NCBI RefSeq assembly: GCF_947493765.1
Contig: NZ_CANLSZ010000002.1
Location: 1-64,000 of the forward strand
Length of the DNA stretch: 64,000 bases
Source of the DNA: an uncultured Arthrobacter sp.
GTDB taxonomy: Bacteria; Actinomycetota; Actinomycetes; Actinomycetales; Micrococcaceae
Direction: 5' to 3'
How positions within the stretch are numbered: the stretch's first letter is position 1; every line of letters starts with the position of its first letter. Positions 40,150 through 52,798 of the stretch are shown in pieces. A program made the position numbers and the translations under genes. The notes beneath the pieces are model-generated. The model did no database searches and was not told where the DNA came from. It saw only the letters and a list, made by a program, of their open reading frames with translations.

Positions 40150-40264
40150 TCAGTGGAGCAGCTCCCAGAATACCCATACAAGGGGATCCTGCCGAATCAC
40201 GGCCCCGGCAGGGCACCCCCGATCGATTCGAAAGCCGTGCAGGCGACTGTGTAGACTGTTTGCT

Positions 40265-40352
40265 GGCCCCTCATGTGGTGTCACCCTGTGAACTCCCCCA
40301 GGACCGGAAGGTAGCAAGGGTAAGCGGGCTCTGGCAGGTGCATGGGGGGTCT
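40265..40352 (+). ncRNA. ffs: signal recognition particle RNA (small, 4.5S type)
   Basis: The conserved apical domain is present: CACCCTGTGAACTCCCCCAG, then CCGGAAGGTAGCAAGGGTAA, then GCGGGCTCTGGCAGGTG. The ends GGCCCCTCAT and ATGGGGGGTC pair to close the long hairpin. GGAAG...AGCAAGGG is the Ffh-binding site. TAGACT at 40252-40257 is a good -10 box about eight bases before the 5' end. The RNA targets membrane and secreted proteins with Ffh. Exact ends are estimated from pairing. Confidence 0.92.
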
Positions 40353-40385
40353 TACCTTTAAGTACCGGCTACAGGAGGTTGCGCG

Positions 40386-47425: not shown

Positions 47426-47639
47426 TGCGATACCGGCGCTCCCGGACCCCGGCCGGGCGCATATTTTCCGGCGGAAGCGCACGTACACAAACGGACACCG
47501 ACTTCCGGTCCGCAATCACGGCGTCCTACACTGACACGGGTGCCCGGGCCCGGCCGCAGGGTCCAGGTCGCGAGGCACCCGCGAATGGTCCCGACAACGC
47601 GGCGCGGTCCCGCCGTCCTCCCTAGCAGTGAGCGAGTGC

Positions 47640-48929
47640 ATGAGCCTCATAGTCCAGAAGTTCGGGGGCTCCTCGGTGTCCGACGCCGAGGGGATCAAGC
47701 GCGTTGCGCGGCGCATCATCGACACCCAGGCCGCCGGTCACGACGTGGTGGTGGTCGTCTCCGCCATGGGCGACAGCACCGACGAGCTGCTCGATCTCGC
47801 CGCGCAGGTGGGCCCCGAGTCGTCGAGCGACCGGGAGATGGACATGCTCCTCAGCGCCGGCGAGCGCATCTCGATGGCGCTGCTGGCCATGGCGATCCAC
47901 GGGCTCGGCGCCTCGGCGCAGTCGTTCACGGGCAGCCAGGCGGGCATGATCACCGACGCCATCCACGGCAAGGCGCGCATCATCGCCGTCTCCCCCCACC
48001 GGATCCGGACGGCCATCGAGAAGGGCGACGTCGCCATCGTCGCGGGCTTCCAGGGCATGAGCCGGGACAGCAACGACATCACCACGCTCGGGCGCGGCGG
48101 GTCGGACACCACCGCCGTCGCCCTCGCAGCGGCCCTCGACGCCGATGTCTGCGAGATCTACACGGACGTGGACGGCGTCTACACCGCGGATCCGCGCGTG
48201 GTCCCCTCCGCGCAGAAGATCGAGGCCATCTCCAGCCAGGAGATGCTCGAGATGGCGGCCTCGGGTGCCAAGATCCTGCATCTGCGCTGCGTCGAGTACG
48301 CGCGCCGCTTCGGGGTGCCCCTCCACGTCCGCTCCTCCTTCACGCACAACGAGGGCACCTGGGTGCTCCCGGCGCCCGACGACCAGATCACGATCGAAGA
48401 GGGAGAACCCTTGGAACAGCCCATCATCTCCGGCGTTGCGCACGACAGGTCCGAGGCCAAGGTCACCGTCATCGGCGTCCCGGACATCCCCGGCAAGGCC
48501 GCCGACATCTTCGGCATCGTCGCCGGAGCCAACACGAACATCGACATGATCGTGCAGAACATCTCGACGCACGGCTCGGGCCGGACCGACATCTCGTTCA
48601 CCCTGCCGATGGTGGACGGTTCCGCCGCCCTCGCGGCCCTCGACTCCGCGCGGGACCGAGTGGGCTTCGAATCGGTCGAGTACAACGAGAGGATCGGCAA
48701 GCTCTCCCTGATCGGGGCGGGCATGCGCTCCAATCCCGGGGTCTCCTACCGGTTCTTCCGGGCCCTGTCCGACGCCGGCGTGAACATCGACATGATCTCC
48801 ACCTCCGAGATCCGTATCTCCGTGGTCACCGAGGCGGAGCTGCTGGACACCGCGGTCCGCGCGGTCCACGCGGCGTTCGAGCTCGACGGCGAATCCCCCG
48901 CTGTGGTGCATGCGGGGACGGGACGCTGA
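47640..48929 (+). CDS. lysC: aspartate kinase (alpha2-beta2 type)
   Basis: 429 residues. It phosphorylates aspartate, the first step to lysine, threonine, methionine and diaminopimelate for the cell wall. LIVQKFGGSSVSD opens the kinase domain, with TTLGRGGSDTTAVALAAAL and EIYTDVDGVYTADPRVV. Two ACT domains follow, with SEAKVTVIGVPDIPGKAADIF and KLSLIGAGMRSNPGVSYRF, where lysine plus threonine bind in relatives. An internal TTG (48412) with AGGGAGA at 48401-48407 could start the beta subunit. asd, which often follows lysC, is not next here. ATG 47640 matches the family start; GTG 47628 is possible. Confidence 0.95.
   Translation: MSLIVQKFGGSSVSDAEGIKRVARRIIDTQAAGHDVVVVVSAMGDSTDELLDLAAQVGPESSSDREMDMLLSAGERISMALLAMAIHGLGASAQSFTGSQAGMITDAIHGKARIIAVSPHRIRTAIEKGDVAIVAGFQGMSRDSNDITTLGRGGSDTTAVALAAALDADVCEIYTDVDGVYTADPRVVPSAQKIEAISSQEMLEMAASGAKILHLRCVEYARRFGVPLHVRSSFTHNEGTWVLPAPDDQITIEEGEPLEQPIISGVAHDRSEAKVTVIGVPDIPGKAADIFGIVAGANTNIDMIVQNISTHGSGRTDISFTLPMVDGSAALAALDSARDRVGFESVEYNERIGKLSLIGAGMRSNPGVSYRFFRALSDAGVNIDMISTSEIRISVVTEAELLDTAVRAVHAAFELDGESPAVVHAGTGR
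48401..48414 (+). promoter_or_regulatory. possible internal translation start for the LysC beta subunit
   Basis: AGGGAGA (48401-48407) precedes TTG 48412 in frame with lysC, giving a C-terminal ACT-domain protein of about 172 residues. In Corynebacterium and Bacillus the beta subunit of this enzyme arises from such an internal start. Confidence 0.5.
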
Positions 48930-49024
48930 TCCTCCCCTGATCCGGGCCGTTCCCTCGGCAAGGGCCCGCTCCCTCTCTTCGGCGGTGCGCCTGCTCGACC
49001 CGCCGCTCAACCCTTCTTGTGGCG

Positions 49025-49432
49025 CCCGGGCCCCAGCACCGGGATCGATACCCACCGCCGGCTCGCTCCCACCGTTCGGGCCCCGGCTCTGGGATCGATG
49101 CCCACCCTCGGCTCGCTCCCACCGTCCGGGACCCAACAGTGGGAACGAGCGCTCATCCCCACCGCTTCAACGCCGGTAGTGGGATCGACGAGGACGCACC
49201 ACGCCCAATCCCACTACTCAGTGCCCAGCACTGGGATCGAAGTGCATGCCCGGCTCAACCCCACTGATCGAGCGCGAGTGCTGGGGTGGAAGGCCCTGGA
49301 CTACTCGTTCCCACTGCTCGAGGCCCACCAGTGGGAACGACCGCTCATCCCCACTGCTTCGACGCCAGTGATGGGATCGAGGAGGACGCACCATGCTCGA
49401 TCCCACCGTTCGGGAACCGACACTGGGAGTGA
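49025..49432. repeat. array of nine imperfect hairpins with 192-bp superperiod
   Basis: A motif GGGATCGA (variants GGGAACGA, GGGGTGGA, GGGAGTGA) recurs at 49041, 49091, 49141, 49181, 49233, 49283, 49333, 49373 and 49425: spacings 50, 50, 40, 52, then 50, 50, 40, 52. In most units it pairs with an upstream TCCCAC-type arm, forming a hairpin. The best is 49305-49316 against 49329-49340, twelve bases perfect. Blocks 49137-49214 and 49329-49406 are near-identical direct copies 192 bp apart. The remaining gene-free DNA of 48930-49636 shows only the terminator at 49562. Frames through the array encode repetitive, unlikely peptides. Confidence 0.85.
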
Positions 49433-49561
49433 CGCCCACAGCCCGAGACCGACGTCCGCCCGAGAACCCGTACAGCCCGTGACCGACGCCCCACCCGAAG
49501 CCCCGCCCGAACACCAGCGCCGAGACCACAGACCCCAGCTCCCGCCCGGAGCCGGAACGCA

Positions 49562-49596
49562 GGAAGGCCGATGGATCGATGATCCATCGGCCTTCC
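49562..49596 (-). terminator. strong hairpin after the subtilase gene
   Basis: Perfect 16-base arms (49562-49577 and 49581-49596, core GGCCGATGGATC) with a 3-base loop, 40 bases after the subtilase stop on the minus strand. No T run. Confidence 0.7.
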
Positions 49597-49636: not shown

Positions 49637-52600
49637 CTACTTGTCGCCGGTCGGGGTGGTCGACTGGGCGGGTCCCGTCAGGAGCTTGTCGGCCGGGTTG
49701 ACGGAGGGGAGCTGGGCCGTGGCCTGACCCTTCCCGTCGACCAGGACGGTCACGTAGGTCGTCGCAGAGGATCCTGCGTAACTCACGCGGCCCACGTAGG
49801 AGCCCGGCGCGAGTCCGGTCCAGGTGAGCGTGACCGCACCGGTGGTGCCGTTCGCCAGGCGAAGCGGATTGGGTGTCACCTTCGCGTTGTTCTCGTCGCC
49901 GCCCAGAATCGCAGCGTCGATCGTGCCGGTAGCGGGCTTGCCATCGACACTGGAGTACAGATTGGCGATGATGCGGTAGGCGCCGGGAGCCGGATTCTCG
50001 AGCGTGATCGTCTCACTGGAGTCCGACGTCGCCACCTGGGTGAGGGTGCCGGCCGGCGTGATGAGGAACATGTCGAAGTCGGCGGTCGGATCGTCCGAGA
50101 GCACCGAGAACTTCGCCACCGGAGTGCCCTTGGGGACGGTGACGTCCTTGACGGCGTTGGAGGCGTTGTTCCCGTTGATCAGCCCACCGGGGACCAGGCT
50201 GATCGCGGAGGAGTCGGCCTTCGACAGACCCTCGAGCGTCATCTTGATCGGGGTGTTGGTACCCGAGGTGACGTCGAAGGTACCGCTGCCGTCGGCATCG
50301 GCGGACGTGAAGCCGACCTCGGCAGGCGCGTTCACGGCCTGGGGACGGACGGCCACCGGGGAGGTGACCTTCTTGCCCTGACCCGACCAGGTGAGCGAAC
50401 CCTTGGCGAACTCACCGAAGGCGGCGCCCTGGTTCTCGAAGGAGACCTTGAACGTGCGGGTCTCGCCGGCCGCGCTGAAGTTCAGGATGGACGGCGTGAC
50501 CGTGACCTTCACTCCGGGCACGTTCGAGGTGGCGCGGTAGATGCCGGGCGTCACGGCGGTGACCGTACGGGTCACCTCGGTGCGTCCGGTCAGGTTACCG
50601 AGGGCGAAGGACGGCACATTGGTGTCCTTCGCGGCGACGGCCTCGAGGCCCTCGATCCCGAGGTCGAGCCCGGTGCCCTGGATGAAGCGCAGGTAGTCGT
50701 CGGCATCCTGGTCGTACACCAGACCCGGGCTGAGGACACTGGCCGGGTTGATGTGACCGGCACCCACGGCGAGGACGTCGGTCTCGACGCCGCCGGATGC
50801 GGTCTTCAGCGGGTAGGCCGTGGTCATCATCGCGGACTTGACCGCAGCGGGCGACCAGTTGGGCTTCTGCCCGAGGACCAGGGCACCGAGACCCGCGACG
50901 TGCGGCGAGGCCATGGAGGTTCCGGACAGGAACCCGAACTGCTCACCGTTCGACCCGACGGTGGAGACGCCTGCGAGGACGGCGACACCGGGAGCGGTGA
51001 TGTCCGGCTTCAACAGATCGGAGTCGGTGGCCAGGAGCGGCCCGCGCGAGGAGAAGCCGGCCACCTGCGGTGTGGGAGGCAGGGGCTTGCCGGTGGTGTC
51101 CGTGGGCTTCAGGGCAACCTTGATCGACGGGTTCGCCGCGACCTTCGCCTTGAGCTCGAGCGCCTCCGGAGCATTCACGTGCACGGTGGGAACTGCATGC
51201 ACATCGGTGTCCGTCGACGAATCGACGAGGTTCACCAGGATCATGCCGACGCCGCCGGCGCGGGCGACTTCGTCGCTCTTGTCGGTCCGGGCGATGGCAC
51301 CGCGGTCGCAGACCACGATCTTGCCGGCGACCTTCGCCGGATCGAGCGTGTTCGCGCCACAGAGATTCGGACTGGCTGCTCCCGCTGCCGCGACGTTCGC
51401 CGCGATGACGACCGGGCTGGCCGGGACGCCGCTGCGCATGATGGACGCTCCGCGGTACTTGGACCCGTCGGAGAACTCGGCCGTGCCCTGGAGCTCGTAG
51501 CTGAAGGTGCTGGCGGCGACGGTGGTCATCCACGGTCCGCCGTGGTTGACCGTGCTCGCGGTGGGACCGGAGTTGCCCGCGGATGCCGCGACGAAGACGC
51601 CGGCGGAGGTCGCGGACAGGAAGGCGAGGGATACGGGGTCCGTCGTCGTCGTCGTGCTGCCCGAGATCGAGTAGTTCAGCACGTCCACGCCGTCGAGGAT
51701 GGCCTGGTTGATGGCGGCGATGGCGGCGGAGGAGTAGCAACCGCCGGTATCGGGATCGGTGTCCTCCCAGCAGACCTTGTAGACGGAGATCTTCGCCTCG
51801 GGGGCGACGCCCGACGATTCACCGAACGCGCGGCCCGCGGCCCGCTGCTCCACGCCGGAGTTGCCGGCGGCGGTGCTGGCGGTGTGGGTTCCGTGGTTGT
51901 CGATGTCCACCGGGGAGATGACTTCCTCAGGGGCACGCTTGGCGGCCGGGACGTTGTCGAGGAAGGTGTCCGCGAAGTAGCGGGCCGAGACGACCTTCGA
52001 GTTGCAGAGGCTGCCGTCGAAGTCCTCACCGACCTGGCACTCGCCCTCGAAGGTGGTGCCGTCGCTCTTGAGCATGGCGATGGAACCCGCGGGGGTGAGG
52101 TAGGGCTCGCCGACCTTGGGCTGCTGCTTGCCCTTGAGCGGCTTGACCTTCTTGCCCTCGAAGAAGGGGTTGTCCGGGGCATAGCCGGTGTCGATGACAC
52201 CGACGACGGTCCCCTTGCCCGCGTTCTTCTTGCCGCCGAACTGCGTCTTCCAGGCACCCTTGCCGCCATCGAGACCGAGGAAGTCGATGCTCGAGTAGTC
52301 CGGGGCGTTCTCGACGTCGGGCGCCACGAGGAGCACGTCGTCGCTCTTGGCCAGCTGGACCGCCTGGCTGGTGCTGAGGTCGGCCGCGAAGCCGTTGATG
52401 GCCGCCGTGTAGGTGCGGGCGATCTCCACGTTCTCCTCGGCTGCGACGTCCTCCTGCTTCGACTCGAGGAACTCCGAGTACTGCTGGACGTACTCGGCGG
52501 TGGCGTCGAGCTTGGCGCCCTCTTCAGGCTTGGTGGGCGCCAGTCCCTCCACGCCGCCCTCGTAGGTGGCCACCGGCTTGTCGGCGAGTACGACGATGTA

Positions 52601-52798
52601 CTTGCCGTCCGGGTACTTCGCAGGGTCCAGATCCTTGGCCGGCGCTTTCTGGGGCGAGACCGAGGTGGACGGAGTGGGTGCTGCGAACGCAGCGGGTGCC
52701 ACGGCGGTCGAGGTGACCAGTAACGGCAGACCCAGGACGATCGCCGTGGCGGCGCGCAGCGTACTGCGGCCCTGCACGGCTTTTCTCCGTTGTGTCAT
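49637..52798 (-). CDS. secreted S8-family subtilisin-like serine protease
   Basis: 1,053 residues. Signal peptide 1-40 (cut after AAFAA). An I9-type propeptide covers about 60-165 (YIVVLADKPVATYEGG, RTYTAAINGFAADLS). Catalytic triad: D203 in GVIDTGYAPDN, H302 in DNHGTHTAS, S628 in LSGTSMASPHVAGLGAL; oxyanion N409 in SAGNSG. A protease-associated (PA) domain sits at about 450-560. After the catalytic domain come Fn3-like beta domains and an end without LPXTG or membrane anchor, so it is released or wall-bound. An inhibitor-like lipoprotein gene lies 1.2 kb away. The 217 bp upstream hold its promoter region but no obvious operator. Confidence 0.94.
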   Translation of the reverse strand: MTQRRKAVQGRSTLRAATAIVLGLPLLVTSTAVAPAAFAAPTPSTSVSPQKAPAKDLDPAKYPDGKYIVVLADKPVATYEGGVEGLAPTKPEEGAKLDATAEYVQQYSEFLESKQEDVAAEENVEIARTYTAAINGFAADLSTSQAVQLAKSDDVLLVAPDVENAPDYSSIDFLGLDGGKGAWKTQFGGKKNAGKGTVVGVIDTGYAPDNPFFEGKKVKPLKGKQQPKVGEPYLTPAGSIAMLKSDGTTFEGECQVGEDFDGSLCNSKVVSARYFADTFLDNVPAAKRAPEEVISPVDIDNHGTHTASTAAGNSGVEQRAAGRAFGESSGVAPEAKISVYKVCWEDTDPDTGGCYSSAAIAAINQAILDGVDVLNYSISGSTTTTTDPVSLAFLSATSAGVFVAASAGNSGPTASTVNHGGPWMTTVAASTFSYELQGTAEFSDGSKYRGASIMRSGVPASPVVIAANVAAAGAASPNLCGANTLDPAKVAGKIVVCDRGAIARTDKSDEVARAGGVGMILVNLVDSSTDTDVHAVPTVHVNAPEALELKAKVAANPSIKVALKPTDTTGKPLPPTPQVAGFSSRGPLLATDSDLLKPDITAPGVAVLAGVSTVGSNGEQFGFLSGTSMASPHVAGLGALVLGQKPNWSPAAVKSAMMTTAYPLKTASGGVETDVLAVGAGHINPASVLSPGLVYDQDADDYLRFIQGTGLDLGIEGLEAVAAKDTNVPSFALGNLTGRTEVTRTVTAVTPGIYRATSNVPGVKVTVTPSILNFSAAGETRTFKVSFENQGAAFGEFAKGSLTWSGQGKKVTSPVAVRPQAVNAPAEVGFTSADADGSGTFDVTSGTNTPIKMTLEGLSKADSSAISLVPGGLINGNNASNAVKDVTVPKGTPVAKFSVLSDDPTADFDMFLITPAGTLTQVATSDSSETITLENPAPGAYRIIANLYSSVDGKPATGTIDAAILGGDENNAKVTPNPLRLANGTTGAVTLTWTGLAPGSYVGRVSYAGSSATTYVTVLVDGKGQATAQLPSVNPADKLLTGPAQSTTPTGDK

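What the first reader, a model, noticed from the sequence alone, without database searches (positions are those of the whole stretch)
49025..49432. Nine-hairpin array with an exact 50-50-40-52 spacing repeated twice
Between lysC and the subtilase lies gene-free DNA in which GGGATCGA-like motifs recur at spacings 50, 50, 40, 52, 50, 50, 40, 52. Most pair with an upstream TCCCAC-type arm; 49305-49340 is a perfect 12-base stem. A four-hairpin module of 192 bp has thus been duplicated, and one sub-block (49137-49214 / 49329-49406) has stayed nearly identical while the rest diverged. This looks like a REP/BIME-type or palindromic mobile repeat and not like CRISPR or ordinary terminators. It could bind a protein, shape mRNA ends, or be a target for a transposase encoded elsewhere.
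Basis: seen in the sequence. Interest (0 to 1): 0.8.

Follow-up and report, generated by a model that had tools for sequence, protein, structure and literature searches.

The report
Helix-phased twin-palindrome arrays in Arthrobacter
Between two ordinary genes lies one of many DNA arrays of a small group of Arthrobacter bacteria, in which a 28-letter mirror-like site recurs at distances that differ by whole turns of the DNA helix, as one would expect of landing sites for a still unknown DNA-binding protein.

Summary
In detail: nine unit copies spaced 50,50,40,52,50,50,40,52 between lysC and a subtilase gene. They belong to a chromosome-wide family. In 32 stretches of three close genomes I found 37 intergenic arrays; 310 of 316 short spacings are 39-41, 50-52, 60-64 or 71-75 bp, that is 40 plus whole helical turns. 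Equal-length linkers of different arrays are nearly unrelated. Shared loci change spacing class between species, in one alignment by a 12-bp indel. The seed is a twin palindrome 40 bp apart, detected in 32 of 38 congeners. A more distant congener has arrays with a changed core letter and the same steps. Stems do not covary in the arrays, although the RNA would fold well; RAYT is absent from 38 of 38 genomes. Best reading: phased double-stranded binding sites for an unidentified protein, laid out like BIMEs but not RAYT-linked REPs. The protein, the binding and the function are not shown. New variant of a known kind.

The parts
47628..48929 (+). lysC, aspartate kinase (AA_kinase plus ACT domains); left neighbour
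49011..49450 (.). the array: nine unit copies, spacing 50,50,40,52,50,50,40,52
49032..49223 (.). 192-bp module, copy 1
49224..49415 (.). 192-bp module, copy 2 (139 of 192 identical)
49017..49044 (.). first, degenerate palindrome; below the site-model threshold
   Evidence: inferred from the register; not found by the model
49067..49094 (.). 28-bp palindromic site
49117..49144 (.). 28-bp palindromic site, first member of a 40-bp twin
49157..49184 (.). 28-bp palindromic site, second member of the twin 49117-49184
49209..49236 (.). 28-bp palindromic site
49259..49286 (.). 28-bp palindromic site
49309..49336 (.). 28-bp palindromic site with the perfect 12-bp arms 49305-49340; first member of a 40-bp twin
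49349..49376 (.). 28-bp palindromic site, second member of the twin 49309-49376
49401..49428 (.). 28-bp palindromic site
49562..49596 (.). separate terminator-like hairpin (16-bp perfect arms, 3-nt loop), seen by eye in 16 of 16 congener gaps printed
   Evidence: its function as a terminator is inferred
49637..52798 (-). subtilase (Peptidase_S8, PA, fn3_6); right neighbour, convergent with lysC

Best explanation
The array is a row of double-stranded binding sites for a sequence-specific DNA-binding protein that is not identified. One dimer would cover one 28-bp palindrome (arms about TCCCAcTGnTCG / CGAncAgTGGGA). Neighbouring dimers would touch, or bend the DNA, in a fixed rotational relation, which is why spacings are 40 bp or 40 plus one, two or three helical turns. 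The ancestral unit is a twin palindrome 40 bp apart in intergenic DNA, often between convergent genes; in some lineages it grew by tandem duplication into arrays that still hold 40-bp twins. By analogy with E. coli BIMEs it would anchor or organise DNA at the ends of transcription units. Shown by sequence: the site family, the spacing rule, the seed, the conserved core, no RAYT, no stem covariation in the arrays. Inferred: that a protein binds, that it reads duplex DNA, and the organising role.
For: 310 of 316 spacings up to 80 bp lie at 39-41, 50-52, 60-64 or 71-75; best period 10.8-10.9 bp, R 0.91, or 0.84 with each value once per array. One mode per locus: 16 loci p<=5e-5; with nine loci of G013, 25 loci p<=2e-5 for phase relative to 40 bp. 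Equal-length linkers of different arrays hardly alike (62-bp steps 0.35 against 0.30 shuffled). Shared loci change class between species, once by a 12-bp indel. Core diverges 0.094, linkers 0.276 between orthologous arrays. 40-bp steps in 37 of 37 arrays but adjacent only twice against 23.6 +/- 3.5 permuted. Same steps in G013 with another core letter. No covariation in arrays, no sense-strand G-T excess. Two of 17 loci lie between divergent genes.
Against: No protein or candidate gene was found. The outer half of the site is no better conserved than linkers (0.283 against 0.276). Loci may descend from a common ancestral array, so they are not fully independent; between-array linker similarity is slightly above shuffles, and the 4-base junction of the 40-bp step is clearly above (0.52 against 0.35). 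The long dyad of congener twins covaries, which a pure duplex site does not need. The array RNA folds well on both strands. G013 gained arrays that close relatives lack, as a mobile element would.
Confidence: 0.5

Rival explanations
1. A REPIN/MITE-like miniature mobile element: the twin palindrome (about 68-76 bp) is moved as a long hairpin by an unknown transposase, and the arrays are by-products of amplification.
For: Long-dyad covariation in 25 congener twins (90 cells changed on both sides against 59.3 +/- 7.0, 0 of 500 shuffles). Arrays of G013 absent at one locus from G007 and G012 and at another from G012. One core letter throughout G013 (105 of 106 half-sites) could be a founder effect.
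Against: RAYT family absent from 38 of 38 congeners; no obvious target duplication at the one empty site read; several loci shared between species by both flanking genes; mobility does not explain linker lengths set in helical turns. The 25 twins include orthologous rows, which can mimic covariation.
Confidence: 0.22
2. Transcribed hairpins that act in mRNA 3' ends (stability, processing or termination), here downstream of lysC.
For: Window array lies between the lysC stop and the terminator-like hairpin; convergent gene pairs are frequent (6 of 17 echini-clade loci, 7 of 13 congener loci, 4 of 10 G013 loci); RNA folds with z -5.0 and -7.0.
Against: No covariation in arrays; in 14 co-directional stretches sense-strand G-T mismatches are fewer, not more, than A-C ones (138 against 240; G-T ahead in 5 of 14); a separate terminator-like hairpin exists; two loci lie between divergent genes; RNA needs no helical linker lengths.
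Confidence: 0.1
3. Neutral satellite-like repeats: duplication made the arrays and the spacing classes are inherited from a few founders without selection.
For: Within-array duplication is plain (linker identity 0.67-0.94 for steps over 40); slight residual similarity between arrays.
Against: The core is about three times more conserved than linkers in 17 array comparisons (alignment words of 7 bases may favour cores); classes switch by whole turns with few intermediates (6 of 316); G013 shows the same classes, and for 10 of its 11 loci no shared neighbour was found.
Confidence: 0.13

Closest known systems
REP sequences and BIMEs (bacterial interspersed mosaic elements)
   Same: Extragenic imperfect palindromes of 20-40 bp in regularly spaced clusters, often downstream of genes; BIMEs bind gyrase and IHF (passages of PMC2817692; PMC3733652).
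   Different: No RAYT, no GTAG or constant CGTC tag, no stem covariation in arrays. In Stenotrophomonas BIMEs inter-REP segments lack homology and vary in length (PMC2817692 passage); here they lack homology but their lengths are quantised.
REPINs (inverted REP doublets)
   Same: A doublet as basic unit, dyad symmetry of the twin, some ordered tandem clusters (PMC3116915 passages).
   Different: No RAYT; 40-bp doublet; several positions kept between species; helical ladder of spacings.
CGTC-tagged REPs
   Same: Palindromes without a dedicated transposase, mostly dimers (PMC3733652 passages).
   Different: CGTC stands at the expected edge in only 134 of 726 half-sites.
Plasmid centromere arrays such as sopC or parC (recalled, no call)
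   Same: Rows of sites at near-helical spacing read by a DNA-binding protein.
   Different: Seventeen arrays found over the contigs of one genome, mixed steps 40/51/62/72; no linked partition gene was looked for.

Membership tests
RAYT-linked REP/BIME | extragenic location | tested here: met
   None of 37 arrays overlaps a gene called by a home-made caller; one isolated single hit in L077 does. Congener twins and G013 arrays also clear.
RAYT-linked REP/BIME | palindromic units of 20-40 bp in clusters | tested here: met
   28-bp unit, 2-21 sites per array.
RAYT-linked REP/BIME | cognate RAYT (Y1_Tnp) transposase | tested here: not met
   PF01797 in 0 of 38 genus genomes; 5 of 14 controls ring.
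RAYT-linked REP/BIME | GTAG tag at one end | tested here: not met
   No fixed GTAG offset; the commonest occurs in 6 of 726 half-sites.
RAYT-linked REP/BIME | stems kept by complementary changes | tested here: not met
   Arrays: 68.8% against 70.0% shuffled. Congener twins: local stems 79.8% against 78.0%, 11 of 500 shuffles.
CGTC-tagged REP | terminal CGTC | tested here: not met
   134 of 726 half-sites at the commonest offset.
REPIN | inverted doublet able to fold as one hairpin | tested here: inconclusive
   25 congener twins: long dyad 73.6% against 68.6%, 0 of 500, rows not independent; echini-clade twins: no signal.
CRISPR array | unique spacers between identical repeats | tested here: not met
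   Linkers within an array are alike (0.67-0.94 for steps over 40) and units vary. cas genes were not searched for.
intrinsic terminator | G+C-rich hairpin followed by T run at a gene end | tested here: not met
   By eye no T run follows the units in the window; a separate hairpin lies at 49562-49596.
protein-binding (operator or centromere-like) array | cognate DNA-binding protein | not testable with these tools
   No candidate gene identified; binding needs an experiment.
protein-binding (operator or centromere-like) array | helically phased inverted half-sites with a conserved core | tested here: met

The most novel reading that the evidence does not exclude
A chromosome-wide set of phased site arrays, grown in place in the A. 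echini clade and separately in a second Arthrobacter lineage, read by an unknown protein that assembles along one rotational register of DNA: a bacterial satellite with a nucleoid-organising or centromere-like role, whose specificity shifted in G013 (TCCCA to GCCCA) while the spacing rule stayed.
Probability: 0.3. Interest if true: 0.85.

Novelty: new variant of a known kind. Interest (0 to 1): 0.63.

Why it matters
What REP/BIME-type repeats do has long been open. Here is a family in which linker sequence is nearly free while its length is held to whole helical turns, in two lineages. That makes the question testable: the rule predicts a duplex DNA binder and says which insertions should hurt (about 5 bp) and which should not (10-11 bp).

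Tried and rejected
RAYT mobility: PF01797 absent from 38 of 38 congeners. RNA hairpins as the working form of the arrays: covariation and strand-specific wobble do not support it; the opposite excess (A-C 240, G-T 138) is unexplained, and sites within arrays are not independent. Coding repeat: steps of 40, 50, 52 and 62 are not multiples of three and no array overlaps a called gene. Phage or plasmid origin: no match in 50,697 phage and 72,556 plasmid records. Terminator: a separate hairpin is present. A weak hit in another order (G033, 30 bases) showed no array when scanned. Neighbour genes: 30 of 32 proteins flanking 17 arrays were scanned (the two beside L085 were not); 24 had a Pfam match, with no common theme. 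A first site search of the wrong length gave nothing useful. Rows dropped: 3 of 152 distinct units before alignment A1; 2 of 27 twins, both of the echini clade, before A2.

Papers: eight searches in an open-licence library listed no paper that describes these repeats in Arthrobacter. Passages only were seen of PMC12306157, PMC3733652, PMC3116915 and PMC2817692. PMC12306157 gives REP-tool counts for Arthrobacter livingstonensis; whether this repeat is among them I did not see. Comparisons with sopC and parC are recalled. My notebook gives 142 bp for the module indel; the alignment shows 92 bp (40+52), used here.

Full report
CHECK. Window 49011-49450 holds nine copies of a 45-nt unit spaced 50, 50, 40, 52, 50, 50, 40, 52, and a 192-bp module repeated once at 72%. 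The best-kept sub-block is 68 of 78 identical, the rest of the module compared 68 of 105. Eight copies pass a position-weight model of the site, which has no hit above 8 bits in the rest of the window. The array lies between lysC (+) and a subtilase (-), with a separate perfect 16-bp hairpin at 49562-49596 beside the subtilase; a similar hairpin is seen by eye in 16 of 16 congener gaps printed.

WHERE ELSE. BLAST of the array gives 20 matches in the window's own genome. A 44-column sequence model (R1, 149 units) gives 206 matches at E<=1; the sites are palindromic, so many count on both strands; the 150 listed fall in 16 clusters. Of 38 genomes of the genus, four (G000, G001, G016, G048) have 123-170 matches at E<=0.001 and the other 34 have 0-8 (at most 150 candidates scored per genome). 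An exact pattern in the collection of 84,980 species' genomes returned 11 stretches, all of Arthrobacter echini AM23, A. echini P9 or one Arthrobacter MAG (the pattern fits only 17 of 156 known units, and the window's own record may be left out). Contig lengths equate G001 with P9 and G016 with AM23; G048 is probably the MAG.

ANATOMY. Each site is an inverted pair of half-sites, about TCGwTCCCAcTGnTCG; the strongest letters are the TCCCA core and the outer T. In 32 stretches from three genomes, chosen from hit lists and so not a census, I found 37 arrays of 2-21 sites, 362 sites in all, 17 of the arrays in the window's genome. Of 325 spacings 316 are 80 bp or less: 106 at 39-41, 53 at 50-52, 139 at 60-64, 12 at 71-75 and 6 elsewhere. 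Of the nine larger ones (88 to 259 bp), six equal sums of usual steps. All 37 arrays contain a 40-bp step, yet two such steps are adjacent only twice against 23.6 +/- 3.5 when order is permuted. Units used to train the model had a neighbour within 104 bp, but no spacing class was asked for.

THE SPACING RULE. The best period is 10.8-10.9 bp (R 0.91; 0.84 with each value once per array). Collapsed by hand to 18 loci, 16 have a step other than 40; their modes are 50 (4), 51 (2), 61 (3), 62 (6) and 63 (1), p<=5e-5 against random values; the best period in that small set is 11.6. Linkers of equal length from different arrays are little more alike than shuffled ones (62-bp steps: 0.35 against 0.30, 1% of pairs above 0.7), whereas within arrays they are 0.67; the 4-base junction of the 40-bp step is the exception (0.52 against 0.35). 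Loci shared between species change site number and class: one has 61-62 (and one 67) in G000, 50-51 mixed with 61 in G001, and 50-52 in G016. The window array and its P9 counterpart differ by a 12-bp indel that turns a 50 step into 62 and by a 92-bp indel, equal to steps 40 + 52. In 17 orthologous comparisons the core diverges 0.094 (1764 columns), linkers 0.276 (2824), the outer site 0.283 (3826) and the centre 0.339 (702); so the core is kept and the outer site is not.

THE SEED. In ten other congeners the weaker R1 hits are, apart from one single site (L108) and one triple (L110), twins of the palindrome; 22 of 24 adjacent steps are 40 and two are 41. R1 says nothing of a neighbour, so this was not built in. 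A twin model (R2, 25 twins) finds matches in 32 of 38 congeners, some with one weak hit, and in a family sample in 21 of 295 genomes, 18 of this genus and 3 of one other (15 candidates scored per genome, strict filters, a lower bound). Four groups of twins sit at the same place in different species by both flanking genes. One twin shares both neighbours with an echini-clade array (L113) and three share one (L109, L121, L127). In the lysC-subtilase gap, four of 15 other species were scanned and three have a twin; three of the 15 gaps, 75-91 bp, are too short to hold one beside the hairpin.

SECOND LINEAGE. G013, whose LysC is 88% identical to that of the window, has twins or arrays in 11 of 11 stretches fetched around its R2 hits. 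R2 selects for the 40 step but not for others; the 42 steps are 40 (18), 51-52 (8), 62-63 (15) and one 115. G stands in place of T at the first core position in 105 of 106 half-sites. For 10 of 11 loci no flanking gene matched one beside an echini-clade array or congener twin; L161 shares a neighbour at 56% with twin L109, itself at an echini array place, so that locus may be old (one gene per side compared). With nine G013 loci added, 25 loci give p<=2e-5 for phase relative to 40 bp. At one locus the relatives G012 and G007 have 19 and 24 bp instead of the 4-site array; at another G007 has a smaller array and G012 none. Arrays thus also appear at new places; I saw no target duplication at the one empty site read.

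HAIRPIN OR DUPLEX SITE. In the arrays pairing of the arms is explained by each arm's own consensus: 68.8% against 70.0% shuffled, three pairs kept by RNAalifold, and for 37 twins, one per array, local stems 0.677 against 0.701 and long dyad 0.676 against 0.676. In 14 co-directional stretches sense-strand G-T mismatches are fewer than A-C ones (138 against 240; G-T ahead in 5 of 14). Against this, both strands of the window array fold better than shuffles (z -5.0 and -7.0), which inverted half-sites give by themselves, and in 25 congener twins the long dyad covaries (73.6% against 68.6%, 0 of 500) while local stems do so weakly (79.8% against 78.0%, 11 of 500); these rows include orthologs. A hairpin stage for the seed is therefore not excluded. 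RAYT is absent from 38 of 38.

PLACEMENT. After grouping by hand, 17 echini-clade loci are 9 co-directional, 6 convergent, 2 divergent; 13 congener loci are 7 convergent, 6 co-directional; 10 G013 loci are 6 co-directional, 4 convergent (L127 and L168 dropped for want of one neighbour). Genes were called with a home-made caller. Neighbours are ordinary: lysC, subtilase, a chaperonin, a glutamine synthetase and GlnE, a Crp-type regulator, a semialdehyde dehydrogenase and others.

READING. Nearly free linker sequence with lengths held to helical turns, a conserved core, no stem covariation in arrays, and a few arrays between divergent genes point to a protein that reads duplex DNA in a fixed rotational register. 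The layout is that of BIMEs; the tested marks of RAYT-linked REPs (RAYT, GTAG, compensated stems) are not met. Which protein it is, whether it binds, and what the arrays do remain open.

Noticed in passing
lysC-subtilase gap of L057, L058, L060 (G049, G023, G020): Another palindromic element (GTCGTTCCTGG ... CAGGAACGAC, about 100 bp) occupies the same gap; DNA search found it in 4 of 38 genomes (G023, G049, G046, G003) in 1-3 places each, and missed the copy seen by eye in G020.
   Followed up: partly
window 40262-40357: Bacterial small SRP RNA, the only Rfam match of the window at gathering score.
   Followed up: no
window 49438-49511: Imperfect tandem repeats of 17 bp and 12 bp directly after the array, unlike the array unit.
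   Followed up: no
L182 about 2320-2430 (G012): Where G013 has an array, G012 has a run of about 17-bp direct repeats (GGCGCGGTCGGTGGTCA-like).
   Followed up: no
L083 (G000:C8): A semialdehyde dehydrogenase gene of the aspartate-family type also flanks an array, as lysC does; the two are not adjacent here.
   Followed up: no
L031 (G033, other order): A 30-base match to the array at E 3.6e-4; probably chance, no array seen.
   Followed up: partly
14 co-directional stretches, echini clade: Mismatches in the palindromes are A-C on the sense strand more often than G-T (240 against 138), mainly from a few arrays such as L097; no explanation.
   Followed up: no
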